In this document: in pieces, positions 6,601 to 63,357 of the stretch
Layout of the letters: each line of letters opens with the position of its first letter
Numbering within the stretch: position 1 is the first letter of the stretch
NCBI GenBank assembly: GCA_947568835.1
Contig: OX387611.1
Coordinates: 3,600,001-3,664,000, forward strand
Origin: Protonemura montana
Lineage: Eukaryota > Arthropoda > Insecta > Plecoptera > Nemouridae
DNA length: 64,000 nucleotides
Direction of reading: 5' to 3'
The notes under the pieces: generated by a model
Seen by the model: the letters and a program-made list of their open reading frames with translations, nothing else
Told to the model about the DNA's origin: nothing
Database searches by the model: none
Made by a program: the position numbers and the translations under genes

Positions 6601-9600
6601 ACACCAAATCTCTCAACTTAACGGGTTGGCGTATTGGAAACACCGGTTCTCGTGAGATTACCGAAGTTAAGCAACACTGCGCTGAGTCAGGTATTGGATG
6701 GGTGATCATCATACACATGACCAGTTCTGTTCGGGAGAGAGGTTGAAGGGATGAAAGTTAAGCAACACTGCGCTGAGTCAGGTATTGGATGGGTGATCAT
6801 CATACACATGACCAGTTCTGTTCGGGAGAGAGGTTGGAGGGATGAAAGTTAAGCAACACTGCGCTGGGTCAGGTATTGGATGGGTGACCATCATACACAT
6901 GACCAGTTCTGTTCGAGAGAGATGTTGGAGGGATGAAAGTTAGACAACACTGCGCTGTGTCAGGTATTGGATGGGTGACCATCATACACATGACCAGTTC
7001 TGTTCGGAAGAGAGGTTGGAGGGATGAAAGTTAAGCAACACTGCGCTGGGTCAGGTATTGTATGGGTGACCATCATACACATGACCAGTTCTGTTCGGGA
7101 GAGAGGTTGGAGGGATGAAAGTTAGTACAGCAACTTCACTCGCCCTGCTTATCAACCTCTCGACAGCATGGATTTGAGGAGGAATCCTGTTGTTCGCGTT
7201 GTACCGTCCTTCGGAAGGGATGTTAAGCTGGTGGTCCCCTTGGTCTTTGACAGGAGTAGGCTACGTGCCGGCACTGGGTTTCCCCTCCTCCCTTCCAGGC
7301 TAGGTTAGGTTTATTATCATCCACTCATTCACCGATGCCATCAGACAAGTGCCGTATGGCCAGATGTCAAAACAGTGCATTGTCAAACACCACAAAATAA
7401 TAATAAATAATAACACCGAATCCGTTCTCACCTTTTCTGGGTAGCGCCTGTCCCCCTCGTCCGGCTATCCGAACGAAGCCGCTCCGGCTCCTGGTCCGGC
7501 ACCGCGCCAGAATCCGGCACAAATGGTATGTTCGCGGGCGCCGACGGCAGGGGCACCAACGACTGGAACACATCGGAATACATAGTTTCAGACGTGGGAT
7601 CGATATCGAAGAGCTCACATTTCCAGGACCGCCAATTGAAATCAAGAGCCAAGCAAGCTCTGGCAATATTTTCATATGGACGTGTTAATTGGTCTGTTTG
7701 CCGTCCTTTACGGCAAATAAGGTGCTGGTTAACTTATGCTTAACATTAACCATTGCCACACGTTACCGGCTCATTTGCTCAGCAGAACGTTTTAAATTAG
7801 AGCTGAGAACCAAGATGTACCCACAATTGGCATGGCAATGAAAACAAGCACAAGAAGAAGCACTAGCACTTTTACAGCGACACAGTGATTTTCTAATCTA
7901 TCGATATACAAAGTTGGTATTTTATTATTATGAACACTTTAACCGTCTCAAAAATTGATGCCCAAACGGGGACTCGAACCCCGATCTCCACCTGTCGCGG
8001 GTGTTGCTCTAACCAATTGAGCTACTTGGACCCCGATCTCCACCTGTCGCAGGTGTTGCTCTAACCAATTTAGCTACTTGGACACTAGCTTTTTGAGACG
8101 GTTTTAGTGTATTTGATGAGAATGACAGATCTCCAAGGAGTAGTACCAAAAGGCTGTGAATACTCACAGTCACTCTGATTCTAGTGACGCTATATCACGT
8201 CACAACCTGTGAAACTCGAATTTAAATGGCTAATTTAAGCTTTGGCGTAACTGTCACTTGTGTTCTCAGTAGAATCAATTTGAGGTTATCTTGAAGAATA
8301 TTAAATGTTAACAGTAAAACTGCCACAAAATGCTACATTAAATTTTATTCGTTGACTAATTCCATAAAGTGCGATTTGTCTTTGACCGTCTGTGGCTGGA
8401 CCCTTTTCTACGTGAATAGAACGTGAAGCGGATGAAGAACTCACCACCGGGTCTTGCACGAAGAGGATGTTGCCCGATCCAGCGACGACCGCCACCGGCT
8501 CGTGGCTCACGCCCACCTCGCCGAACATCGGAGGCGGTGCTAGAGGGGCGTAGGGGGCGGAGTCAGTCACGTCGTCGGACTCGGGTGGGTCTAAAACGAT
8601 CACCTCGGGCTCCTTAGATTCTGTAAAAACAAGTAGAGTTGCTTAGAGAAGTGATCTTATGTTACCACGGGTATATCATGGCCAGGCATAGGAGGTTCAA
8701 TGGTAGATTCAACGTTTGGTAGCCATGAAGATGCTGAGATCGCCTGACAGAGCTTCTCAATTCTTCTATCTTATGTTACCACGGGTATATCATGGCCTAG
8801 CATAGGAGGTTCAATGGTAGATTCAACGTTTGGTAGCCATGGAGATGCTGAGATCGCCTGACAGAGCTTCTCAATTCTGCTATCTTATGTTACCACGGGT
8901 ATATCATGGCCTAGCATAGGAGGTTCAATGGTAGATTCAACGTTTGGTAGCCATGGAGATGCTGAGATCGCCTGACAGAGCTTCGCAATTCTGCTATCTT
9001 ATGTTACCACGGGTATATCATGGCCTAGCATAGGAGGTTCAATGGTAGATTCAACGTTTGGTAGCCATGGAGATGCTGAGATCGCCTGACAGAGCTTCTC
9101 AATTCTACTATCTTATGTTACCACGGGTATATCATGGCCTAGCATAGGAGGTTCAATGGTAGATTAAACGTTTGGTAGCCATGGAGAAGCTGAGATTGCC
9201 TGACAGAGCTTCTCAATTCTGCTATCTTATGTTACCACGGGTATATCATGGCCTAGCATAGGAGGTTCAATGGTAGATTCAACGTTTGGTAGCCATGGAG
9301 ATGCTGAGATCGCCTGACAGAGCTTCTCAATTCTGCTATCTTATGTTACCACGGGTATATCATGGCCTAGCATAGGAGGTTCAATGGTAGATTCAACGTT
9401 TGGTAGCCATGGAGATGCTGAGATCGCCTGACAGAGCTTCGCAATTCTGCTATCTTATGTTACCACGGGTATATCATGGCCTAGCATAGGAGGTTCAATG
9501 GTAGATTCAACGTTTGGTAGCCATGAAGATGCTGAGATCGCCTGACGGAGCTTCTCAATTCTGTTATCTTATGTTACCACGGGTATATCATGGCCTAGCA

Positions 9601-18600: not shown

Positions 18601-20403
18601 GCTGAGACTGAGTCCATCGCTCTGTATCTCGCCGGCCTCGGGACCCGAGAGGTCCTCGGAGCTGACGTCCGAATACTCGACGAGCGGCTTTATCGACGCG
18701 GAGACCAGCTCGACGAGGTCAGAGTCGCGCGGGGAATCACGGCTTCGCTTGCTGCAAAACACGGAGCTGGTTAGGTTAGGTTAGGTTAGGTTAGGTAAGG
18801 TTAGGTAAGGTTAGGTAAGGTTAGGTTAGGTAAGGTTAGGTTAGGTATGGTTAAGTTAGGTTAGGTTAGGTAAGGTAAGGTTAGGTTAGGTTAGGTTAGG
18901 TGAGGTTCTGCGAAATCTGATTTAAATTGCAGACGCTTGCAATGCGCGGGATATTTTATTATTATAAACATTTGCAATTTAAATCAGATTTTGCATATTT
19001 AACATCAAATTGGAGTTATTCGAGTTTGACAGGTTGTGCCTTGATATAGCGTCACTACAATCAGAGTGACTGTGAGTATTCACAGCCTCTTGGTTCTACT
19101 CCTTGGAGAACTGTCATTCTCATCAAATACACTAAAATCGTCTCAAAAAGCCAGTGTCCAAGTAGCTCAATTGGTTAGAGCAACACCCGCGACAGGTGGA
19201 GATCGGGGTTTGAGTCCCCGTTTGGGCATCATTTTTTGAGAAAATATTATAGTTCCTAATAATAAAAAATATTCTGAGATTTTTTCGAAGAACAAGGAAA
19301 CGAATATTTATAATGAAAAAAAACATTGATTTCTGACGCAATAGGCAAACACATAATGTGCATTCTGGGCAAGATCGAAATATTACTGACAGTTTTATGA
19401 CGATCTCATAAGCTTTTTCTAAAATAAATTGAAAGTCACATTTGGCTGCATTTGCCCCATGAGAATGTTAAATCTATGAAAGCTTCATCAGTGATTGCAT
19501 ATCATGTCCATCTGTGTTATCATTGTCATTGAAGATTTTGTACTAAAAGTTCTGAAACCTTTCTCATCTATTGCACAAGCATTTTAAATGTATGTCGGGA
19601 TAATGTAAAAGCTAATTTGCAAACGCTTTCAATGTGCAAAGTAGTTTATTATTATAAACACTATTAACCGATAACAAAAACCCATTTTTACACATATTTT
19701 TGAGAGGTCATCAACATTCCATAAAATACAAAATGTCCGAAAAGATCTTTCATGAAATCCCACGCACCCATCTATTTTGTACTTCAACCGTTGAGCGCAG
19801 GTTCTAGGTAGAGTTTCAACGTCAATGTTACAGTCTCTGCGTTGAAGATGGCCGCCAAATGACTACCTTACTGACAAAAATGCAGAGTACCGGAACATCA
19901 CGTTAGGTGGAGCCACTGTCGTATGAAATTTAATTTCGATATTTCTCGTAGATTACTTGCTTTTTAATATTGCTATGTGTTTATCAATCGTTGAGGTAAA
20001 CATTGATGGAGATTTTTTTAGCATGAAACGTCACAAAAGCGAGTTAACCTACGAGAAATATCGAAATTAAAATTCATACGACAGTAGCACCACTTAACGT
20101 GATGTTCCGGTACTCTGGATTTTTGTCGGTAAGGTAGTCATTTGGCGGCCATCTTTCACGCAGGGACTGTAACATTGACGTTGTTTCTCTACCTATAACC
20201 TACACTCAACGGTATTACCAACCGAAAATCCCGAAATGGGGTTCGCCATCAGAATCCAGAGTTACTCACTTGGAGGCGGAGTCCTTGCGCTTGGACTTCT
20301 TCGTCACTTTCTTGGACTTTGAGTGCTTCCGTCGGCCCTTGGACTCGGAATCCGTCTTGGTCCTCGAGCGGCCGTTGCGGGAAGACTCGCGCTCGCTCGG
20401 CAT
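686..20403 (-). CDS. CDK12: Cyclin-dependent kinase 12/13 (partial, C-terminus off window)
   Basis: RNA polymerase II C-terminal-domain kinase that partners cyclin K in the nucleus. Phase-consistent coding exons (minus strand): 20270-20403, 18592-18751, 17281-17379, 16387-16490, 15612-15852, 14493-14663, 13568-13767, 13121-13183, 12497-12643, 11864-12052, 10726-11105, 8445-8620, 7432-7562 (could extend to 7613), 6325-6503, 5633-5884, 3592-3752, 2887-3090, 1983-2180, 686-954; about 1152 residues. The N-terminus is Arg/Ser/Lys-rich and holds the conserved [14 protein letters not shown] motif. The kinase shows glycine loop [16 protein letters not shown] lysine, helix [24 protein letters not shown], the T-loop Thr in [11 protein letters not shown], and [12 protein letters not shown]. 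The last exon ends at a GTGAGT donor (intron from 685), so the gene continues left of position 1. The start ATG follows a 3' splice site at 20412. CDK12 and CDK13 cannot be separated here; invertebrates usually have one gene. Confidence 0.95.
1063..1345 (-). mobile_element. 5S-derived SINE fragment, three 91-bp internal units
   Basis: Reverse-strand copies of the unit carrying TAAGCAACACTGCGCTGGGT and GGATGGGTGACCATCATA, the 5S rRNA internal promoter region. The 3' body is limited to a few bases (1022-1062). CDK12 intron. Confidence 0.8.
1378..1495 (+). mobile_element. Decayed fragment of the tRNA-like repeat
   Basis: Contains AACGCTTGCAATGCGCAAAG and a remnant of the tRNA head (GTCCAAGTAGCTCAA). 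CDK12 intron. Confidence 0.5.
1632..1886 (+). mobile_element. Half copy of foldback MITE family E
   Basis: Matches the right half of the roughly 425-bp foldback element (CACTTAACGTGATGTTCCGG, ending in CACTCAACG). The left arm is missing. Confidence 0.75.
1895..2016 (-). repeat. 76-bp duplication of a CDK12 exon end with its splice donor
   Basis: The 3' end of the kinase exon (GGGGAGCTGTTCTGGAAG on the minus strand, through CAG and the GT donor) occurs twice, near 1971-2016 and again near 1895-1940. The upstream donor, GTAAAC at 1982, gives the conserved KKPVFQ junction. The second copy is in another frame with donor GTGAAC. A decoy donor therefore sits 76 bp into the intron. Confidence 0.75.
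2256..2768 (+). repeat. 42-bp minisatellite, about 12 copies
   Basis: Unit contains GTGCTGGGATAACAAGAATA. As 42 is divisible by three, several frames stay open on both strands; these are not genes. CDK12 intron between the 1983-2180 and 2887-3090 exons. Confidence 0.95.
3119..3372 (-). repeat. Family A 114-bp minisatellite, two inverted copies
   Basis: Reverse complement of the array at 1-660, starting about 30 bp upstream of the acceptor of the 2887-3090 exon. Inverted copies on either side of two kinase exons could pair in the transcript. Confidence 0.9.
3806..4035. mobile_element. Foldback MITE family D
   Basis: Inverted arms: TTTTGAATGCTAAGTAAAGG on the left, its complement on the right (CCTTTACTTAGCATTCAAAA). 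The centre here is short and diverged. CDK12 intron. Confidence 0.75.
4040..5210. other. CDK12 intron, no recognised feature
   Basis: AT-rich unique-looking intron sequence. I see no exon, RNA gene or repeat family here. Confidence 0.5.
5214..5542 (+). repeat. 49-bp minisatellite, about 6.7 copies
   Basis: Unit contains GCTTGCACAGATATTCCATC and TTATGAGGCAAAGACTA. The same family recurs in the zinc-finger gene intron at 47373-47593. CDK12 intron. Confidence 0.95.
5936..6303 (+). repeat. 68-bp minisatellite, family B, about 5.5 copies
   Basis: Unit contains GGCTAAGCGGTGGCCGGTCC and GCTGTTGGACAGGAGCAGCC. A larger inverted array lies in PSMC5 at 27070-27935. CDK12 intron, ending 20 bp from an exon. 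Confidence 0.95.
6621..7415 (+). mobile_element. 5S-rRNA-derived SINE with tandem 91-bp internal repeats
   Basis: The head reads GAAACACCGGTTCTCGTGAG then ATTACCGAAGTTAAGCAACA and GGATGGGTGA, a clear match to 5S rRNA with its A and C box regions. The next 91 bp are repeated about five times. A body follows (CCTTCGGAAGGGATGTTAAG, GGCCAGATGTCAAAACAGTG), ending in an A/T-rich tail (AATAATAATAAATAATAA). This is the fullest copy in the window. SINE3-class elements have 5S heads; that class assignment is inference. Confidence 0.85.
7905..8220 (-). mobile_element. tRNA-like repeat (family T1), one full and one partial head
   Basis: On the minus strand 8031-7959 folds as a 73-base cloverleaf: GTCCAAG/TTTGGGC acceptor stem, D arm GCTC/GAGC, T arm CGGGG/CCCCG. 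Box A (TAGCTCAATTGG) and box B (GGTTCGAGTCC) are present. The base before the anticodon is G, not T, so it is unlikely to be a working tRNA. Flanks shared with other copies include GACGCTATATCACGTCACAA. Confidence 0.8.
8652..10654 (+). repeat. 114-bp minisatellite, family A, about 17.5 copies
   Basis: Same unit as 1-660. Nested higher-order repetition is visible: the variant with GATTAAACGTTTGG recurs at intervals. It fills the 2.1-kb CDK12 intron between the 8445-8620 and 10726-11105 exons. Confidence 0.95.
11215..11860 (+). mobile_element. 5'-truncated LINE 3' end with an 84-bp tandem repeat
   Basis: Reads [20 protein letters not shown], the usual C-terminal end of a non-LTR retrotransposon reverse-transcriptase protein. 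Then come four 84-bp copies (11362-11700; GTAGGTATGTTCCTACCACA), an A/T-rich stretch and a terminal (AATC)n tail. The tail ends two or three bases inside the CDK12 intron, next to the donor of the 11864-12052 exon. Confidence 0.7.
12078..12432 (+). repeat. 70-bp minisatellite, about 5 copies
   Basis: Unit contains CTACATAATACGACCGGTGG and CCCCGACCTAGAGCGGTCAT. The same family forms an 18-copy array at 40558-41822. CDK12 intron. Confidence 0.95.
12686..12720 (+). repeat. Single copy of the 29-bp minisatellite unit
   Basis: CAGCCTCTTGGCATCCTTTT flanked by AATATCTAC matches the unit that is repeated about 52 times at 45412-46915. CDK12 intron. Confidence 0.7.
12801..13080. mobile_element. Foldback MITE family D, near-perfect hairpin
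   Basis: The left arm (TTTTGAATGCTAAGTAAACA to TTTGAGCAGTCCT) is mirrored by the right arm (CTGCTCAAACCTCTGAAGAA to CATTCAAAACCCAGTTGAAA). Arms of about 120 bp flank a short loop. CDK12 intron. Confidence 0.85.
13121..13767 (-). repeat. Tandemly duplicated CDK12 exon segment
   Basis: Exon 13121-13183 encodes [20 protein letters not shown]. The neighbouring exon 13568-13767 ends with [20 protein letters not shown]. Both end in the same phase (AG before GTGAG or GTGGG). The sequence therefore shows a duplicated exon end, kept in frame, inside the SR-rich region. The intron between them carries three copies of a roughly 65-74 bp repeat (13296-13510). Confidence 0.75.
13296..13510 (+). repeat. 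Three copies of a 65-74 bp repeat
   Basis: Unit contains GTGTGCAGTCCCATATGATA and ACCAAGTTTTAAGATCCTTG. It lies in the intron between the two related CDK12 exons. Confidence 0.85.
13798..14484 (+). repeat. 41-bp minisatellite, about 16.7 copies
   Basis: Unit contains GCTCTATCCAGGTTATTTGA and CAGCTGGCTGGATCC. Variants repeat in groups of about five units, a higher-order structure. It ends ten bases before the donor of the 14493-14663 CDK12 exon. Confidence 0.95.
14850..14960 (+). mobile_element. Body fragment of the second tRNA-derived SINE (family T2)
   Basis: CTAGCTTCCTTTCCATCTTT and GCTGGTTTCAGCTCCC match the body of the copies at 15120-15571 and 63350-63640. No tRNA head here. Confidence 0.55.
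15120..15571 (+). mobile_element. tRNA-derived SINE (family T2) interrupted by a LINE
   Basis: The head starts CCCAGATAGCTCAG (box A) and resumes after the insertion with ACCGGCAATTGGGAGGTCCT and GGTTCGAATTCC (box B), then TCTAGCTTCCTTTCCAT. Compare the intact relative at 63350-63640. Confidence 0.7.
15138..15486 (-). mobile_element. 5'-truncated LINE 3' end inserted in a SINE
   Basis: The minus strand encodes [20 protein letters not shown] followed by [14 protein letters not shown] and a stop, the C-terminal tail of a non-LTR retrotransposon protein. A 3' UTR and an (ACAAT)n tail follow. TCAGT direct repeats at 15133-15137 and 15487-15491 look like the target-site duplication. Confidence 0.75.
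16020..16320 (+). mobile_element. tRNA-like repeat (family T1), two heads
   Basis: Contains GACGTGATATAGCGTCACTA, then two truncated tRNA-like heads (GTCCAAGTAGCTCAATTTGT) and the TTTTTGAGACGGTTATGGTG end. CDK12 intron. Confidence 0.75.
16635..17206 (-). mobile_element. 5S-derived SINE, body plus three 91-bp units
   Basis: Tail and body on the minus strand (GTTTAACGACGCACTGTTTT, GGACCACCGGCTTAACGTCC on plus) joined to three internal units at 16907-17206. The 5' head is lost. CDK12 intron. Confidence 0.8.
17715..17770 (+). mobile_element. Fragment of the tRNA-like repeat flank
   Basis: TTGCAAACGCTTGCAATGCG and TATTATTATCAACAC match the outer part of family T1; no tRNA head. Confidence 0.5.
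18194..18398. mobile_element. Foldback MITE family D
   Basis: Inverted arms GGGTTTTGAATGCTAAGTGA and TCACTTAGCATTCAA around GTAACAGGTACAAGTTACGA. CDK12 intron. Confidence 0.8.
18455..18527 (+). mobile_element. Solo tail of the 5S-derived SINE
   Basis: TGGCCAGATGTCAAAACAGT followed by GCGTCGTTAAACACCGCAAA matches the 3' end of the element at 6621-7415. Confidence 0.65.
18771..18901 (+). repeat. Interstitial TTAGG telomere-type array
   Basis: About 26 TTAGG units with TAAGG variants. On the CDK12 strand it is (CCTAA)n and ends about 18 bp before the acceptor of the 18592-18751 exon. TTAGG is the ancestral arthropod telomere repeat. Confidence 0.9.
18912..19250 (+). mobile_element. tRNA-like repeat (family T1), one full head
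   Basis: Outer flank AATCTGATTTAAATTGCAGA, central GATATAGCGTCACTACAATC, then a full tRNA-like head ending GGTTTGAGTCCCCGTTTGGG and TTTTTTGAGAAAATATTATA. CDK12 intron. Confidence 0.75.
19789..20211. mobile_element. Foldback MITE family E, full length
   Basis: About 423 bp with long inverted arms: GTTACAGTCTCTGCG and GAATGACTACC-type sequence on the left, and GGTAGTCATTTGGCGGCCAT to CTACACTCAACG on the right. CDK12 intron, close to the first coding exon. Confidence 0.85.
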
Positions 20404-25758: not shown

Positions 25759-31895
<6,137 letters not shown>

Positions 31896-32671: not shown

Positions 32672-35600
32672 ATGGACTCTCCAAAGTCAAAGATATCTTT
32701 GGGTTGTAATAAAAAATCAATACAAATCGAATCAGGCTCCGACTCTGATAAAACATACTATAATGGACCTCCACTGATGACTGCTGCAAAAGAAATCGTT
32801 GCAAATATTGCAATTTCAAATGATATCTCATATCAAGATCACTTGTTGAGATTTACCACAAACACCAATGTAGAATGTACAAGTTCAATTGATACACAAA
32901 TTGTTCAGAAGCAATGGAGCGAACCTAGATCATCTCGACAAGAGAATCAGGCATCTAGTTTTGGATTGGGCCGGCGCTTGTCGTGGAAAGATCCAATTGC
33001 CAGCTTTTCTCAAAGAAGTTCAGAACGTTTGCGTAAAGAATCACCCAGAGAAAATATCAAAGACACACATCTAGTAAGTGGTTGACTGATTTTTATTGTA
33101 AGCCAAATATTTCTGTAGTATTTTCGTAAGACCCAAAGTACTAAACTTAGCTTTTCCACAAGCAATTTTGCATATAACTACTTTTATCTTGGCTTCAGCT
33201 GGTTTAAACTCGAAATCTGTCAGAACTGAGAAGAAAGAGCAAAAATGGAAACTGAAAAACTTGCCATTTGTTTCTGATCTCTGAACCAAGTTAATAGAAA
33301 TCCAAATCGAATTCCACATTAATTAGCAAATTAAATTGTCAATACTAAGGTAAGAATAGTCGTAAAAAAAGTATGCATTTTTTCTGTTTGCTAGATTAAG
33401 TTGAAAACCTGGCTGTTCAAGACTGACTCTAGGTTAACAATGTCGTTGCTCTCTGGGGGACAACCTTTAAGTTGCGACGAAGCCGAGTCGGTGCTCAAAA
33501 AGACAAAGCAATGCTTGCAGCAATTTGCAGAACTGAAGCAAGGCACAGAAGATCTGATGCAGGAGGCACAGTTTGTAGCAGAGAAGATCATCAGGCGTGT
33601 TACCATGAAAATAAGGTAAATCGAAGACGTTTCGTGAGTATACAGTTTGCGTTTATACTTTAGAATTGCCGTCACATAAATTGTTCAGCCCTGATTTAGT
33701 TCAACTGCACGATATATTGCGGGACGGGGATTATCGCAAGGTTTTCTTTAGGCATTCCCCTTGCCTTCAAGTACGTGGTGTCGTCCTAAACGTGGTTCAA
33801 CATCGAACAACGACCAATCATTTTTCACTTTTACAGAAACCCACCTTTACATCATAGAAATACTCTGATGAACACAAACTTGGTATTTTTTTTCCTGTAA
33901 TTTTGATCGCCTTTATTTTGTCGCTAATTGATGTAAACTATTTTACACATAATCATGACTCGATTGTCATATATCCACAGTTTTATTTATGATATTGGAG
34001 TACACATTTTGCAGATTCGATGCTGTAAGAAATCATGAATATCTTATGCATAAATATATCAGGATTAAATAGTTTGCAACAAAAAAATATATAAGGAAGT
34101 GTAATAATATATATATTTTTTTTAATGCTCGTATTGGTCAACTTGGTGCTTTCTATTGATACAATTTCTCAAAGATGTACATTATTTGTGAGATTTTTAA
34201 ATAATTAAGCTTCCTTGTTTCAATGTTTCTAGGGATCAGCATTGCTACGATAACAGCGCTCAATGCCCCAATCGTTCCTCGTTAGAGAAATCATCGCGAA
34301 ACACCAAAGATTCTGTTGTTGAATCCTTCGTACACCAAACGAATATCAACGAACCAATCGCGACGCAGTACACATTCGAGGACGACAAGAAAACTCAAAA
34401 ACAAACAAAAGCCAAAAGATTTACTCCGTCACAAAATCGTTTCGAAATCAAAACGAACCGCAAACGAAAGCAGCCGCGTTTAGACTACGATTCAGATTAC
34501 TTGCCGCCGCAGAGAATAATGAAGCAGATCAAAATACAGCCAAGAAATAAAACACGGCGGACTTTAGCGGCATCGCAGGTTAGTTTCAGTGAAACGAGTT
34601 TACGATCGCAAGGCAACGTAAAGTTACAAGAGTTGAGAGAATCGGCCGCGTCCCCGTCCCTGTTGGAAATGCAGGGGACGATGCAGTTGACGGAAAGAGG
34701 AAACGAATGGGAAACTCGGTCAAAAATGCAAAATCTGATTGTAACGGGAACAGATATAGAAAATCCCGTAAGAAATCTCTCGTTTGAACGAACCAGTGAC
34801 ATGTTTCAAGGTTGCTATGACAGCGTCGTGGTTAACGGCGGCAAGTCGGACGACGAATTTGGGGCGAGAGAACGAAAATTTGAATCGGTTTCATCGGAAA
34901 TACCTGGAGAGACAAGAAAAATCGGAGATTTTGAGATTGCTACGAAATCGACAACGGACACCAACGATGAGGTTATGGTCTTGACGCGTGTGGCTGGCGA
35001 AACGGTAGAAATCGGCGAGGAAATCGAGGGAAATTCGGAAAGTTTGGCTTACGATTCAGGAAATGGGGCCGACAGGAAGATGAAAGCGGAAAGTACGTCT
35101 TCAGCGAATTTCGTGCGAGAGGATTTCAGTTCGGAAATCATCGAAGATACTTCGCCTGTCGAGTTGGAAAGCTTTAAGAAGCTGGGAAAAAAAGTGAAGA
35201 GCTTTCAAAAGAAAAGAGCGGACTCTCCGCTGCCAATAGTCGGGGAAAACGTGACCAGTCTGCCGTTCCCTATCGTGACCGAGGATATTTCAACGACGGA
35301 CTCGTCGTTTCGGAAAAATGCTTTCGAAGAAACTTTGTTTAAAGACAGGAAATGTTCGGCTTTGATAGTTCGTAAGCCGACCTCAAAAGTTGAGTCCAAG
35401 CAAAAGTCGATTCCGAACGCAGATCAAATCGAAGAGAGCGGAGATTTCATTGATTATTTTACGACGGCAAAAGATATAAAAAATACTTTGCAGAAAACTG
35501 CCGAGCTCGTGTCACCCAAGTCTTGCGAAGACTTCGTATCGTTTGAAGTGAAAGAAGACGCAGAGCCGTCGAAACCGTTTGCAATAAGTTGCAGACATAT

Positions 35601-38600
35601 TTTGACCGGCAAAAACGTTTCAATTGAAAGTGACCGGGAATTGGAAACGGATCGTTCGACATTTCAAAAACGATCGGAAGACTTAAAAGTTTTGCCCATC
35701 GCAGAAAGACTCGACGACGACCGATGGCATTTGCTCGAAACTTATTACAAGATCCAGAAAAAAATGAGAGAGAACGCCGTTATTAAGCAAACGAACGATC
35801 GACCATTCACGCAAACGTTGGCGGAAAACATTGGAACCTTCGGACAAAATACCACGGCCATCGAACACAGCCGTTCGTTGTCCTTATTTCAAGACGTGTC
35901 AGGGCCGAACCTGGATTTCTCAGCGAAGAAAACGTCTTCGAAAGCCGTCGGAAATTCGATGACGGTAATCGACGATAATCTTTTAAAGTTAAGACCGACG
36001 TATAAAGACACCCTGGAAAACTGCAGCACAATCAGCAACTCAGACAATACATTTCCAGATGTTTTAACTGTAAACGCTAAACGTGAACAAACTTTGACGC
36101 AGTTGTTGACGGAAGACAGTCAAGTTCTGACCGACACGCAATTAGTTGCAAAATTAGTTGCTTTATCAGCAATAAAATCAACAAATCGGGTCAACTGTGA
36201 CTCAGATTCAATAAGCCAAGCTAATAACACGCGGTCCTATAATAATTTTGCGAAACCAGCAATAAATTACGTTGAATCTGATCTTTTAACTCAGTCGATG
36301 CTTAAAGACAGCCAAGAGTTGATAGGCACTCAACTGGGTAAAGAACTGAACGAACAGGACAAAAAAAAACAAGAAAATTGTAATAAATCCCATCCTGATT
36401 CCGTAAAACTCGCTAAAAATTGCATGAGAAGCGTAAACGACGACCGATCTGTGACACAATCGATGCTTGAAGACGGCCAAGAAATCCCGTTGTTCGCAGA
36501 GAAAATAAAGAAAGCTCCGTTCACGAACTTGGGAACGATTCCCAAAGTTTCTGCGCCGCGACTCAAAAGAAAATCTCTGGAATCGGCAGAAAGTTCGGTG
36601 AGAATAAATTCTGCGGCGTTGGACATCTTCGAGCTTAAATCAAAGTCGCCAAGGGCAGCGGAAAAGTTTAATTTTCGAGGCAAAAATTTGGAAAGTCAAG
36701 AATGTGATAAAAGCGAGTTACTTCAGAAAGAATTAGATTGTTTTGTCAGCGAAATTATTAATGAAGGTCGATTCGGCTTAGAAAACATCGCAGTTCAAGG
36801 GACAAAAGATTCTTTGCAAGCTTTTGATAAAGATGTAAAATCAGAAGCTTTTGGAAAAGCATTTCTACCAAATTTCTCTCCGAGCAAAGTTGACTTTGGA
36901 AAAACAAAAAATCTGAGGACACAAAGCGAACTCGCGTTCATTTGGCCGCAAAATCCAAAGAAGCAAGAAAAAGAGCAATTTTTTAAAAACTCTTTCGCCG
37001 AAACTAAAAAATTGTCAGCGGAAATACCATCGTTGAATTCTAAACGTAATTTTGTGTCTTGTCTCGATCAGATTGCTGAGAGATCGCAGACCATGCTTCG
37101 AGATTCAAGACAAACTCCATCGAAAGAATCGGATCAACGTAAAGAGTTGGTTTCACACAAACTTCTGTCGAACAATGCAAACCAATCGAAGAAAGAATCC
37201 GTAAAAACATCACAGAAAAAAAAGTCAATTCCGAAAAATTTGCAAATCGATATCGAGTTCAGGCCAGAACTTGACAAAATCACGAGGCACGATTTGAGCA
37301 ACGTTTCTCAAACAATGAGCCGGCTCGAAGATTTGATTCCTGTTAGCAGCATAAATTTTAGCGAAAACGAAAGCACTTTAAAAAATCCACTTCCCAAAAA
37401 CCAGTTTAACATACAAAGCGTTCCGGGTTTGACGGCAATCGACGTGGAACTGCGTCAAGTGCAGTCGACGAAAACATCGCCGAATCATAACCTAGAAATG
37501 GAGCAACGAAACAAGGCAGAAAATGTTTGCGAGAAGCAAGCGGCGACGAAACGATACCAGTATTTCGCCAGAACACCGACGGAAGAAAACGCTGCTAGGA
37601 AATTGCAACCCCACGGAAATGCGGTTGGAGATTGGCCGGGCTTTGAAGGCATGGCTTCGTGGCAAGGTTTTGAAAGTTTCAATTCACTTTCTAATCGGTT
37701 TCAAAGAACTGAAGACGCTAAAAATTCGCGGAACGTAGAACAGTCGGAGATTAGATGGCAAAATTTTACCAGTCGCCCGATTTCTGCAAATTTAAACGAG
37801 TTTCGCATGAAAAATGTGTTTTTGGATCAGATTCGAGGTCCAAAAATCGGGTTAACTGAAACCAAGAACAAAGAATTGACTCAAAGCTTGCCAGCTCAAG
37901 ATGATTTCCAAGTTGGTCAACAATTTTCTTCTGGTAAAAATCATTCGCAAGCCCAATCCGATTCGACTGATTCGATAAAATCGACCATAAACCAAGACGT
38001 CCTGAAAGCGAAACAAGCGAAATGCTCTGAAACATTTGATTCATTGATTGTAAAAATGTTGGACTACAAAAACGTAGCAAATTGTAGAGCGAGCGAGAGC
38101 CAGGATTCTGTTTGTGCCGAGATTCTAACAAAACAAACGCAGCTCCAACAAAACATCGATAAAACATCTGTAGCTAAAATAACTGTCAGGTAAGATTTTT
38201 TAAAAATCATTTAACAATAAATCATTTAAAAGCCCAAAAATTATTTAGATAACAAACGACAGAAGATTTTAAATCATTTGACGAGGATTTATCGATCCTA
38301 TTTGTTTTTGAGAATCCAGGAAACAATATACTTTTTTAATTCTTTAATAATGATTGGTAAAAACTGTTACTGCAACTAAAAAAAAATCTCTTTTAGTGCA
38401 AATTTTCTGGAAAAATCAGTTCTTAAAATAATACATATAAAAACATGATACAATTAATAAGGAATGCTTCTCAAAATGGCTGCCTTGAGTATTTTTTATG
38501 TGTAGTTTGGTAGTTTGAACAGATTGAAGAAATTTAAGATCCACAGCTGCTACAAGAACTTGGATATTTTTTCTGTAAAAAACAACAAAAAAACGTCTTG

Positions 38601-56681: not shown

Positions 56682-56687
56682 TTTATT
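56682..56687 (-). terminator. CENP-A polyadenylation signal
   Basis: AATAAA on the minus strand about 55 bases past the stop codon of the last CENP-A exon. Confidence 0.65.
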
Positions 56688-56740: not shown

Positions 56741-59700
56741 CTACGGGTTAAGCGGGTGATTTCTGCCTAGTAAAAGTCGCGCGAGTTGGCAGTCCCGGAC
56801 CATCAGGGTCTTGCGGCGCGCGTGCCAGGTGCAGAAATAAGACATCGTGAAAAAGTTGGTCAACTGAACTTCTGCGGCTTCTTGCAGGCACTGGAGAGCT
56901 TCACCAGTGAACCTAGTGGACCGTTATTAAGTTTTGTTTTACTCATGTCTACTTTATCTTAACTTAGCAATAGTTTGAAGGACAACTAAATTTCCCAACG
57001 TTTCGTAACTTGTACCTGTTACTTTGCAGGAAATCATCAGATTGGTGATTTCAACCATTTCACAGAAGACTAGTAATTTGTGTTGTCCAAGATTCCTTCT
57101 GATGGTATCGGTTACTTCTGTCCCTGCTACACTTAAATCGGCTAGCTTAAAAAATCAGTAGCAACCTCTTTGCTGATTGGCGGCCGGGAATTACCAATCT
57201 GTCACTTATTTCGTTTCCTTACGAGTTAAAAAAATTAAGTAATTCTGTGTTGGGAGTCTCTTGATTTGTCTCCCAAAAGAAACTAGGCAAGTACCTCGGC
57301 ATTAGGGTTGTTATACGTCCCGCTTTTCACTCAAAAGTCCCGCGTCCCGCTCGATCGTAATTTTCTTTTAAAAAATCGCAAAATCAATCATTTCATTTGC
57401 ATTGCTCCTTATAAATAGCTAATTGTTCCTCTAATTGTGCCACTGGCATTATGATTGTACGTGAACTGTCGCCCATACATTTTTTTTTTAAATCTATGGT
57501 TAAATATTTTTTTTTTTTAAATAGTTATACTAATTATACCTAAATTGCTTGCTAATAAATTGAAAGTTGATGCATAAATATGACTCAGGATTTCAAGTGC
57601 CAAGAAAATCCTTAATATATCTAAAACGCGTAAATTTGCTGAAAATGGCCCTCAATTCCTGTTCCCACATCCACACCCTTATTTTTTGGGGAGCTTTGTC
57701 TGTCCCCCGAGCCTCCGGCCTAACTAATTTTCGTTTGTTAAAATTTGTTCCGCCCTCCGAAATTTTTATTATGGCAACCCTACTCGCCATGCCACAAACC
57801 TACGGTGGAACTGAGATGAAGTGAAGCTGTTCAATCACAAGGAGTTCGATAGAAAATGTAAAATTGTCGGTTGATAGGTTTACACGTAGGTTTTCTACAT
57901 TCTTTTACATCTCAAGTGGTTTACACACGTTTCTTCAACTACATGATTCGACGTTTGTCGCTACATAGACGTTTGTTAAAAATGTACGGTTGCAGGCGCC
58001 ATCGTTTGGTCACCTCCGTTAAAACGTGTAGCAGGCTCGTTTGCTCTGCAAAGAGTTTAAGAGTAGCGCTAAGCTCTGACTAATTGTAGTGCTAATTATA
58101 TCGCTTTGAAGGATGCATGTATCGAAGCAAGCCAATCTTTTATAAAAAGTGTTACAGACATGAATTAGGGAAAACTTATTATTAACTCTGCTGCCTTTCA
58201 AGAATCGGTATTTATATTAAACAAGATACTGGGATGAAATCTTATTTAAATTGCAAACGCTTGCAATGCGCGGGGTATTTTATTATTATCAACACTATAA
58301 CAGTCTCAAAAATTGATGCCCAAACGGGGACTTGAACCCCGATCTCCACCTGTCGCGGGTGTTGCTCTAACCAATTGAGCTATCTGGACACTGGCTTTTT
58401 GAGACAATTTTAGTGTATTTGATGAGAATGACGGATCTCCAAGGAGTAGAACCAAGAGGCTGTGAATACTCACAGTGATTCACTCTGATTCTAGTGACGC
58501 TATATCACGTCACAACCTGTCAAACTTGAATAACTCCAATTTGACGTTGGATTCGTTGCTGTATAAGGATGAAATACACTAAAATCGTCTCAAAAATCCA
58601 GTGTCCAGATAGCTCAATGGTTCAGAGCAACACCCGCGAAAGGTGGTGAATTTGAGTCCGCGTTTGGGCATCAATTTTTGAGACGGTTATAGTGTTGTTA
58701 ATAATAAAAATAAGATACTGTTTCTGCTTTCTGGCTGATTCTTGGGATCTTATTGTTGTTATGATAAATGAATCGTAAATAGTTTTGATTACCCTTCTAC
58801 TGTTGTGAGTTTGTATCCTAAACAAATTAAACTTTTGGAGTGTTGACTAGATAGATCTAGTCCAATCTGAAATCTAGAATAATCTGAATCTAGAATAATA
58901 AGAATAATCTAATAATCTAGAATAATCTGAAATCTAGAATCTTTGTTCCAATCTGAAATTGTTCTTATGCATGTTTATGATTTTTTCAATTGTATGTGAC
59001 TAACCTCATGTCTTGCAGAAGAAACCCATCTTTCAAGCAAGAGTCTTCCTTTCGTCGCCTATTCTCTTCGGCTGCTAGAACATTTCTGACAACTCGAATG
59101 AAAGCGGCTCTCGGGATGAGTAGGTGTGTAGACTTTTGGAGCTTGCGTATCTCCTGGAGAGCTGCCACGCCCGGAGCTCTTCGCTTCTTAACGTCAGAGC
59201 CCTGTGATTTGCTTCTGCGAGATGAGCTCTTTTGCAGTGAGGTACTTTGAGACGAGCTCCTTTGAGACGAGCTCCTTTGAGACGAGCTCCTTTGAGACGA
59301 GCTCCTTCGAGATGAGCCAGTTGTGCATGATTTTTTGGAAGACTGCATAAGGTAAAAGAAGGTTGGTTTGTTTTTTGAATAATAGAATCATAGAAGAAAG
59401 ATAAAATCTATCCACTTTTAAAAAAGTGGCAAACGGAATTGATTCTCAGGCAACTTCTTGTAAACTGTCTGTTATTTCTAGTCGTAAACATAAATAACTC
59501 CTTAGCCTAGAACGCCTCGAAATAAACCATTGTTCCATTATTTAAAAACGTAATCAAATAATAATGAAAGAAAGACGTCAGATTCCAATTTAGAATAGAA
59601 CATGAAGTAGGTACACACCTTTGAAGACCTTGCGCACGTTTCGCTAGGCGTCTTCGGCGTACTTTTAATTGCTTCCACGAAGAATTCTTTCAGCTTCTTT

Positions 59701-59741
59701 TTTTCTACGTTAGGCAATGGAACTTGCTTCGTTCGAGCCAT
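56741..59741 (-). CDS. CENPA: Centromeric histone H3 variant (CENP-A/CenH3)
   Basis: H3 variant that replaces H3 in centromeric nucleosomes and seeds the kinetochore. Three exons in phase: 59619-59741, 59005-59342, 56741-56912; 210 residues. It starts MARTKQVPLP, keeping the H3 N-terminal hexapeptide. A Ser/Arg/Gln-rich tail (about residues 42-90) contains repeats of SSSQR. The fold begins at KRRAPGVAALQEIRKLQKST, with THLLI as in CENP-A rather than ELLI as in H3. After helix 1 (IRVVRNVL) there are about 16 extra residues before MRFTGEAL. The last exon aligns with H3 helices 2 and 3 without gaps: LQEAAEVQL, HARRKTLMVRDCQLAR, stop. The exon 2-3 join (AG plus G) restores an Arg-Phe shared with H3. 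A 2-kb intron 2 holds tRNA-derived repeats. AATAAA at 56682-56687 supports the end. Not canonical H3: introns, divergent tail, divergent helices. Confidence 0.9.
56939..57025. mobile_element. Fragment of foldback MITE family D
   Basis: ACTCATGTCTACTTTATCTT and CAACGTTTCGTAACTTGTAC. CENPA intron 2. Confidence 0.6.
58234..58712. mobile_element. Two opposed family T1 tRNA-like repeats
   Basis: An inverted copy at 58234-58560 with one complete head (CGGGGACTTGAACCCCGATC) and a forward copy at 58565-58712 with a damaged T arm. Together they form a large palindrome in CENPA intron 2. Confidence 0.75.
59215..59325 (-). repeat. In-frame 15-bp coding repeat in the CENP-A tail
   Basis: About five copies of a 15-bp unit (AGCTCGTCTCAAAGG on the coding strand) encode SSSQR repeats, flanked by degenerate copies. 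The 15-bp length keeps the frame, so copy number can vary without breaking the gene. Confidence 0.8.
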
Positions 59742-60135
59742 TTTCTTTGATCATTAAATTAAATCGTGGAAATTATCTGCTGAAACCTAACCTCTATCAG
59801 ACCAGACGCACAAATTTAAAAGAGCGTCGGGTAGTGACGTCACGCACACACGCGCATTGGATACTTAATTTATGACCGAAAATTTGAATGACGAGTTAAA
59901 AACACTATCAACGGTTCGACATAAAAATGATTTCCCCAGCAAGTGTTTACCAGAAGGCCTGATTAATAATGCACTGGTCAAATGTTATTACTACTTTATT
60001 GGATATATTTCTGTGTAGTAACATATTCTCACTACTATGGCTCGCACAATTATAGAAATCCTTTTTCTATACTGTAACTAATCCCTTGTCCAGACCCATA
60101 ACTTAACGTTTGCTTCAATTATTTTACCCTTGCAG

Positions 60136-60357
60136 GTTGGCAGGTGCTATTATTCTCGGGTTTCACCATGATGCTCGACCTGCTTGCTGAATACCTCGAG
60201 CTCCGCGGCTACAGTTATTGCTCTCTGGACGGATGGATGAAGCTAGAAGAAAGGCAGGTTGAGATCCGACGATTTAACTCGGATCCCGACTGCTTTGTGT
60301 TTCTGATTTCCACTCGCACAGGGGGGCTTGGCATCAACCTCACGGCAGCAGACCTTT
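60136..60357 (+). pseudogene. Orphan exon of a SMARCAD1/Fun30-type SNF2 helicase
   Basis: The frame reads WQVLLFSGFTMMLDLLAEYL, then LDGWMKLEERQ, FNSDPDCFVFL and TGGLGINLTAAD, matching the start of the helicase C lobe of SNF2 proteins. The phrase FTMMLD points to SMARCAD1/Etl1. It is preceded by an intact-looking acceptor (TTTTACCCTTGCAG), so it was copied as genomic DNA, not as a retrocopy. Homology stops after GGCAGCAGAC with no donor. The usual FSQF is FSGF, and the conserved LDG-x-T segment is altered. No other exons are visible nearby. Probably a broken fragment. Confidence 0.6.
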
Positions 60358-61661: not shown

Positions 61662-63357
61662 GGCTTCTTCGAGCGCTAACTCTTGGAGCGCTAACTCTTG
61701 GAGAGCTAACTCTTGGAGAGCTAACTCTTGGAGCGCTAACTCTTGGAGAGCTAACTCTTGGAGAGCTAACTCTTGGAGAGCTAACTCTTGGAGCGCTAAC
61801 TCTTGGAGCGCTAACTCTTGGAGAGCTAACTCTTAGAGCGCTAACTCTTGGAGAGCTAACTCTTGGAGAGCTAACTCTTGGAGAGCTAACTCTTGGAGAG
61901 CTAACTCTTGGAGCGCTAACTCTTGGAGCGCTAACTCTTGGAGAGCTAACTCTTGGAGAGCTAACTCTTGGAGAGCTAACTCTTGGAGCTCTAACTCTTG
62001 GAGCGCTAACTCTTGGAGAGCTAACTCTTGGAGAGCTAACTCTTGGAGAGCTAACTCTTGGAGAGCTAACTCTTGGAGAGCTAACTCTTGGAGCGCTAAC
62101 TCTTGGAGAGCTAACTCTTGGAGAGCTAACTCTTGGAGAGCTAACTCTTGGAGCACTAACTCTTGGAGCTCTAACTCTTGGAGCGCTAACTCTTGGAGCG
62201 CTAACTCTTAGAGCACTAACTCTTGGAGAGCTAACTCTTGGAGAGCTAACTCTTGGAGAGCTAACTCTTGGAGCGCTAACTCTTGGAGAGCTAACTCTTG
62301 GAGCGCTAACTCTTGGAGCGCTAACTCTTGGAGAGCTAACTCTTGGAGAGCTAACTCTTGGAGCGCTAACTCTTGGAGAGCTAACTCTTGGAGAGCTAAC
62401 TCTTGGAGAGCTAACTCTTGGAGAGCTAACTCTTGGAGAGCTAACTCTTGGAGAGCTAACTCTTGGAGAGCTAACTCTTGGAGAGCTAACTCTTGGAGAG
62501 CTAACTCTTAGAGCGCTAACTCTTGGAGAGCTAACTCTTGGAGAGCTAACTCTTGGAGCGCTAACTCTTGGAGAGCTAACTCTTAGAGCGCTAACTCTTG
62601 GAGAGCTAACTCTTGGAGAGCTAACTCTTGGAGAGCTAACTCTTGGAGAGCTAACTCTTGGAGCGCTAACTCTTGGAGCGCTAACTCTTGGAGAGCTAAC
62701 TCTTAGAGCGCTAACTCTTGGAGAGCTAACTCTTGGAGAGCTAACTCTTGGAGAGCTAACTCTTGGAGAGCTAACTCTTGGAGCGCTAACTCTTGGAGCG
62801 CTAACTCTTGGAGAGCTAACTCTTGGAGAGCTAACTCTTGGAGAGCTAACTCTTGGAGCGCTAACTCTTGGAGCGCTAACTCTTGGAGAGCTAACTCTTG
62901 GAGAGCTAACTCTTAGAGCGCTAACTCTTGGAGCGCTAACTCTTGGAGAGCTAACTCTTGGAGAGCTAACTCTTGGAGAGCTAACTCTTGGAGAGCTAAC
63001 TCTTGGAGAGCTAACTCTTGGAGCGCTAACTCTTGGAGAGCTAACTCTTGGAGCGCTAACTCTTGGAGAGCTAACTCTTGGAGAGCTAACTCTTGGAGAG
63101 CTAACTCTTGGAGAGCTAACTCTTGGAGAGCTAACTCTTGGAGAGCTAACTCTTGGAGCGCTAACTCTTAGAGCGCTAACTCTTGGAGAGCTAACTCTTG
63201 GAGAGCTAACTCTTGGAGAGCTAACTCTTAGAGCACTAACTCTTGGAGAGCTAACTCTTGGAGAGCTAACTCTTGGAGAGCTAACTCTTGGAGAGCTAAC
63301 TCTTGGAGAGCTAACTCTTGGAGAGCTAACTCTTAGAGCGCTAACTCTTGGAGCGCT
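61662..63357 (+). repeat. 15-bp minisatellite, about 113 copies
   Basis: Unit CTAACTCTTGGAGAG with GAGCG and TTAGAG variants. The minus strand reads LQELA repeats. The array joins directly to the end of a tRNA-derived SINE at 63350. Confidence 0.95.

What the first reader, a model, noticed from the sequence alone, without database searches (positions are those of the whole stretch)
56741..59741. A CENP-A/CenH3 gene hidden in three small exons
The last exon is too short for ordinary frame calling. The three exons join in phase to a 210-residue H3-like protein. Helix 2 to the C-terminus aligns with H3 without gaps, KSTHLLI resembles CENP-A, and a polyadenylation signal sits 55 bases past the stop. 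Centromeric histones evolve fast and are often missed, and they define the centromere type of a lineage.
Basis: partly seen in the sequence, partly recalled or inferred. Interest (0 to 1): 0.9.

Follow-up and report, generated by a model that had tools for sequence, protein, structure and literature searches.

The report
Insect centromere histone (CENP-A) gene
This stretch of an insect genome holds one intact three-exon gene for the special histone that marks centromeres; it looks like a real gene that is easy to miss, but an expected one, with an unusually long loop and an ordinary-H3 beginning as its oddities.

Summary
Three minus-strand exons (59741-59619, 59342-59005, 56912-56741) join in phase at GT/AG sites into a 210-residue H3-like protein, with AATAAA starting at base 54 past the stop. 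Pfam Histone E is 4.8e-19; the best PDB sequence is fission-yeast CENP-A, narrowly ahead of H3. EIRKLQKSTHLLI is identical to human CENP-A, the tail is unlike H3 apart from MARTKQ, and loop 1 is 16 residues longer than in H3. Trees put it outside H3, but with modest support and borderline rejection of an H3 placement (p-AU 0.041, 0.049, 0.11). In its 258-Mb genome it is the only CenH3 candidate found, beside H3 and H3.3. The genome is an insect's with ancestral mitochondrial gene order; the order was not identified. I read it as the species' single CenH3/CENP-A gene: a new member of a known family, expected in a monocentric insect. Interest would rise sharply only if the species proved holocentric. 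No transcript or localisation data were available.

The parts
59619..59741 (-). CenH3 exon 1 (codons 1-41): MARTKQ... start and basic tail
   Evidence: join; only 1 of 1,980 ATGs followed by ARTKQ; donor AAG|GTGTGT 8 of 9 consensus positions
59343..59618 (-). intron 1, 276 nt, GT...TTATGCAG
   Evidence: GC 0.31 against 0.50 in the exons
59005..59342 (-). CenH3 exon 2: Ser/Arg-rich tail with RSSSQ repeats, alpha-N helix, alpha-1 and loop 1
   Evidence: Histone E 1.7e-7 for this frame alone; 15-bp tandem repeat 59219-59317
56913..59004 (-). intron 2, 2,092 nt, carrying a tRNA-like (SINE-like) element at 58315-58390
56741..56912 (-). CenH3 exon 3: alpha-2, loop 2, alpha-3 and stop codon
   Evidence: Histone E 1.4e-11 for this frame alone; 44% identity to H3.3 over 50 residues, no gaps
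56682..56687 (-). AATAAA polyadenylation signal, starting at base 54 after the stop
59835..59842 (.). TGACGTCA (CRE-like palindrome) about 95 bases upstream of the start codon; one of 3 in the window, role unknown

Best explanation
A functional, single-copy gene for the insect's centromeric histone H3 variant (CenH3/CENP-A). Shown here: an intact frame with splice sites, H3-fold homology, CenH3-type sequence features, one copy found in a genome that also has ordinary H3 and H3.3. Inferred: the protein pairs with H4, is deposited at centromeres by an Scm3/HJURP/CAL1-type chaperone that reads loop 1 and helix 2, replaces H3 in centromeric nucleosomes and seeds the kinetochore; the Ser/Arg-rich tail is a target for kinases and modifiers.
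For: Pfam Histone 69.3 bits, cut-off 26.4. Best of 175 PDB sequences is S. pombe Cnp1, a CENP-A. EIRKLQKSTHLLI identical to human CENP-A, whose recalled sequence matched 3nqu_A over all 140 residues. Loop 1 is +16 relative to H3 where the seven CenH3s compared have +2 to +6; Q68 to I and T107 to S. The H3 rows form one side of a branch without it: 86/92, 88/94, 93/91, below the program's star threshold. In its own genome the only strong matches besides H3 and H3.3 are its own three exons. No internal stop; introns rule out a processed copy. Its second intron, at DMR|FTG, lies elsewhere than the H3.3 intron, read by eye at GALQ|EAS, so it is no recent H3.3 duplicate.
Against: F84, one of the residues said to be absent from CenH3, is kept. 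p-AU for joining it to all H3s is 0.041 and 0.049 under LG+G4 but 0.11 under the mixture model; for joining it to its own H3s 0.027 and 0.085, to H3.3 0.028 and 0.092. At positions where Cid or Cse4 differ from H3.3 it matches H3.3 more often (16 to 12; 7 to 3), though the reverse holds for human, Xenopus, S. pombe and Arabidopsis CenH3. The PDB margin of Cnp1 over H3 is only 3.7 bits. No CENP-C cupin found with Pfam's model, a weak negative. No expression or localisation data.
Confidence: 0.92

Rival explanations
1. A divergent non-centromeric H3 variant (for example germ-line specific) that kept the MARTKQ start.
For: Keeps MARTKQ and F84; H3 placement not rejected under the mixture model (p-AU 0.11).
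Against: The rest of the tail is unlike H3, loop 1 is much longer, the KLQKSTHLLI and SY..T.H motifs match human CENP-A and Cid; no other CenH3 candidate was found in the genome, so this reading would leave the genome without a detected one.
Confidence: 0.05
2. A decaying CenH3 pseudogene or an exon set that is no longer spliced.
For: Fast divergence; the acceptor of exon 3 has a weak pyrimidine tract, 9 of 17; a relic-like HELLS exon lies about 400 bases away.
Against: 633 nt open with start, stop, GT/AG sites and polyadenylation signal; no other copy was found in the genome that could have replaced it.
Confidence: 0.03

Closest known systems
Insect CenH3 (Drosophila Cid; CenH3 reported in Hymenoptera, Coleoptera, Blattodea, Orthoptera, Phasmatodea, Ephemeroptera, PMC4359364)
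   Same: Histone fold, SY-x-x-T-x-H and TL-x-VRD residues shared with Cid, Leu-Ile-Pro before helix 1, longer loop 1
   Different: 34 of 91 residues identical to Cid; loop 1 insert of 16 rather than 2; ordinary H3 start MARTKQ. Only Cid was compared by sequence; the other insect CenH3s were not available.
Human CENP-A
   Same: EIRKLQKSTHLLI identical; 45 of 99 aligned residues
   Different: Longer loop 1, Ser/Arg repeat tail, MARTKQ start
Arabidopsis CENH3 (HTR12; sequence recalled, not checked)
   Same: Highest identity of the 11 compared, 53 of 102; IPxAxFIRxVR; a MARTK start is recalled
   Different: Plant protein; branch support for the pairing is 55/25, i.e. none
Canonical H3 and H3.3 of the same genome
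   Same: First six residues, fold, gap-free alignment from RFTGEAL onward
   Different: 44 of 98 aligned residues identical to H3.3; H3 repeats on C11, orphan H3 on C16, H3.3 on C13 with another intron position

Membership tests
CenH3/CENP-A | Histone H3-type fold domain | tested here: met
   Pfam Histone E 4.8e-19; the 60 PDB sequences shown of 175 are H3 or CENP-A by name, but for one called 'Histone domain-containing protein'
CenH3/CENP-A | Loop 1 longer than in H3 | tested here: met
   +16 residues; +9 if donor 59026 is used
CenH3/CENP-A | N-terminal tail unlike H3 | tested here: met
   By eye only MARTKQ is shared; the rest is Ser/Arg/Lys-rich with RSSSQ repeats. The shared start is itself unlike human CENP-A
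CenH3/CENP-A | H3 residues Q68, F84, T107 (69, 85, 108 with Met; criteria seen in passages of PMC7598501) absent | tested here: inconclusive
   Q to I and T to S, but F kept: 2 of 3
CenH3/CENP-A | Groups apart from H3 in a tree | tested here: met
   weakly: support 86/92, 88/94, 93/91; p-AU against joining H3 0.041, 0.049, 0.11; few and partly recalled references, long branches
CenH3/CENP-A | Located at centromeres | not testable with these tools
   Needs antibody, tag or ChIP
CenH3/CENP-A | Transcribed and spliced as modelled | not testable with these tools
   No RNA reads available
canonical H3 / H3.3 | Near-invariant sequence | tested here: not met
   44 of 98 aligned residues identical to H3.3

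The most novel reading that the evidence does not exclude
A CenH3 that keeps the exact H3 start ARTKQ, so that centromeric nucleosomes could themselves carry the lysine-4 mark and be read by H3K4 readers and writers, combined with a strongly extended, charged loop 1 that a co-evolved chaperone must accommodate; and, if the species belongs to a holocentric lineage, an exception to the rule that holocentric insects lost CenH3.
Probability: 0.1. Interest if true: 0.6.

Novelty: new member of a known kind. Interest (0 to 1): 0.25.

Why it matters
CenH3 marks the centromere and evolves fast, so each correctly modelled gene from another insect lineage gives an entry point (antibody, ChIP) to map centromeres in a genome that, in this window at least, is rich in tandem repeats. 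The extended loop 1 lies in the part chaperones read (CATD; passages of PMC13001451), and the ARTKQ start makes a simple question testable: is the centromeric histone modified at lysine 4?

Tried and rejected
Nested gene inside HELLS: the helicase exon at 60135-60353 is a lone copy; a recalled human HELLS found no other credible match in the window, and a multi-exon HELLS-like gene lies on C12, whose corresponding exon is 67% identical in DNA over 213 bp. Two long HELLS-like frames on C1 looked like retrocopies, but the stretch compared reads like CHD- and ISWI-type helicases (names recalled).

Naming the species: satellite and SINE words found nothing in viral contigs or genome contigs; of 43 pattern matches in viral contigs none encoded a relative of the protein. 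Nemurella pictetii (257 Mb; part 1 of 2 of the paper's text seen) was considered and rejected because its chromosome sizes differ from the contig lengths. A search by six chromosome sizes found one paper, not about a genome, and one by '258 megabases' none. The model PF12278, recalled as Hymenoptera-specific, rang nowhere, so it is uninformative. Literature searches for loop 1 insertions in crustacean CENP-A (0 papers) and for CenH3 with Plecoptera or Ephemeroptera (12 listed of 358, none of the 12 holding Plecoptera) gave nothing further.

Structure prediction of the joined protein was not tried: the tool admits only proteins that the DNA gives letter for letter, and a spliced product is not that.

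Selection (dN/dS) was not tested: no related sequence was found. The Scm3/HJURP (PF10384) search did not complete.

Full report
What is there. On the minus strand of the window three exons, 59741-59619, 59342-59005 and 56912-56741, join at GT/AG sites into a frame of 210 codons and a stop; introns are 276 and 2,092 nt. AATAAA starts at base 54 after the stop. Exon GC is 0.50 and intron GC 0.31 and 0.37. The protein begins MARTKQ, continues with a basic, serine-rich tail that contains a 15-bp tandem repeat coding for RSSSQ, and ends with an H3-type histone fold.

Chance. A profile built from 11 histones without this protein (partly recalled sequences) gives 55.2 bits for the exon 3 frame and 43.1 for the exon 2 frame; the best score in 60 dinucleotide-shuffled windows is 15.5. 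The two halves therefore stand on their own, and the junction between them restores the H3 register: DMR|FTGEALQCLQEA against DLRFQSAAIGALQEA. Exon 1 has no fold to support it, but only 1 of 1,980 ATGs in the window is followed by ARTKQ.

What it is. Pfam Histone matches with E 4.8e-19. Of 175 PDB sequences at E up to 10 (60 shown) the best is fission-yeast Cnp1, 67.9 bits, ahead of H3 at 64.2; the margin is small. EIRKLQKSTHLLI is identical to human CENP-A, where H3 reads EIRRYQKSTELLI. In an alignment with four H3s and seven CenH3s, loop 1 is 16 residues longer than in H3; the seven CenH3s have 2 to 6 more (mouse, Xenopus and Arabidopsis CenH3, human H3.1 and H3.3 and yeast H3 are recalled sequences). 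Of three residues that tell H3 from CenH3, Q68 and T107 are changed and F84 is kept (criteria as used for Tribolium, passages of PMC7598501; loop 1 and tail criteria also in PMC4359364, section 5 part 1 of 2). At positions where a CenH3 differs from H3.3 the protein sides with the CenH3 for human (9 to 7), Xenopus (9 to 4), S. pombe (7 to 3) and Arabidopsis (12 to 4), and with H3.3 for Cid (16 to 12) and Cse4 (7 to 3); mouse was not counted. In trees the H3s form one side of a branch without it, support 86/92 (12 rows), 88/94 and 93/91 (15 rows including the genome's own H3s), none reaching the program's star. Forcing it to join all H3s gives p-AU 0.041, 0.049 and, with the mixture model, 0.11, so the tree alone is not decisive. 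Its nearest neighbour is unresolved.

Its own genome. The window is C14:3600001-3664000 of a genome of 258.5 Mb in 34 contigs. Pfam Histone gives 36 matches there. I translated five of these places: an H3 repeat on C11, an orphan H3 on C16, H3.3 split by an intron on C13 (two matches), and weaker matches on C13 and C4 that are no H3; two more are exons of this gene, and the rest, mostly repeats on C11, were not translated. Searching with the protein itself gives 15 matches: its three exons, eleven H3 or H3.3 places, and one weak match to the serine-rich tail. It is thus single-copy as far as this search sees, and the only CenH3 candidate found. A CENP-C cupin was not found with Pfam's model, which says little for a fast-evolving, exon-split protein.

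Which animal. Odorant receptors of the 7tm_6 family (129 exon-level matches) and an Orco gene on C5 make it an insect by established knowledge. The EcR ligand domain is equally close to 2nxx and 4ozt (208 and 209 of 233; beetle and louse, recalled), less so to 1z5x (413 against 460 bits; whitefly, recalled), and far from 1r20 (315 bits; moth, recalled). On the mitochondrial contig C34 (15,000 of 15,885 bp examined) the tRNA order, with two of 24 calls in the COX1 region set aside, and the protein frames read by eye follow the ancestral insect arrangement; rRNA genes were not searched; A+T is 68.5%. From general knowledge this argues against barklice, lice, thrips and most Hymenoptera, and fits stoneflies, mayflies and several other orders. 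A (TTAGG)n-type stretch at 18769-18907 agrees with an insect. The order is not settled, and neither is the centromere type.

How it most likely works. Inferred from the family: the protein replaces H3 in centromeric nucleosomes, is loaded by an Scm3/HJURP-type chaperone through loop 1 and helix 2 (passages of PMC13001451), and recruits the kinetochore. Nothing in this chain beyond the sequence was shown here.

What is known and what is new. CenH3 has been reported in every monocentric insect order examined in PMC4359364 (Diptera, Hymenoptera, Coleoptera, Blattodea, Orthoptera, Phasmatodea, Ephemeroptera) and was not found in the holocentric ones (section 5, part 1 of 2). A new insect CenH3 is therefore expected. 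Unusual within the set compared are the length of loop 1 and the intact ARTKQ start; in a text search for CenH3, CENP-A, N-terminal tail and ARTKQ, none of the 12 papers listed of 153 holding at least three of the terms contained ARTKQ, which is a narrow search. I cannot say that either feature is unprecedented, because insect CenH3 sequences other than Cid were not available.

Noticed in passing
60135-60353 (+): A lone helicase exon that matches HELLS/LSH best; a 67% DNA copy of one exon of a multi-exon HELLS-like gene on C12, with no other credible HELLS match in the window: probably a relic of a partial duplication about 400 bases upstream of CenH3.
   Followed up: partly
window, e.g. 6664-7124, 28221-28815, 29361-30038: About 28% of the window is tandem arrays (34 intervals that I chose from the 49 rows); an array of a 91-bp unit overlaps a 5S rRNA match (6617-6735) and arrays of a 52-bp unit overlap tRNA-like matches, so satellites seem to have been built from 5S- and tRNA-derived pieces.
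   Followed up: partly
34201-38190 (+): A 1,330-residue open frame without any Pfam (E up to 0.1) or PDB (E up to 1) match, with repeated TQSMLxDSQ-like stretches seen by eye.
   Followed up: partly
61666-63357: A 1.7-kb array of about 113 copies of a 15-bp unit, which leaves frames open by its period alone, just upstream of CenH3.
   Followed up: no
G000:C4:5760766-5777812: Two nuclear COX1 copies 15,886 bases apart, about the length of the mitochondrial contig (15,885 bp), which suggests a head-to-tail nuclear insertion of mitochondrial genomes; only COX1 was looked at.
   Followed up: no
G000:C5:14737961-14758121 (-): An Orco gene with 39 to 74% identity per exon to Drosophila Orco (recalled query), which looks divergent for this conserved co-receptor.
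   Followed up: no
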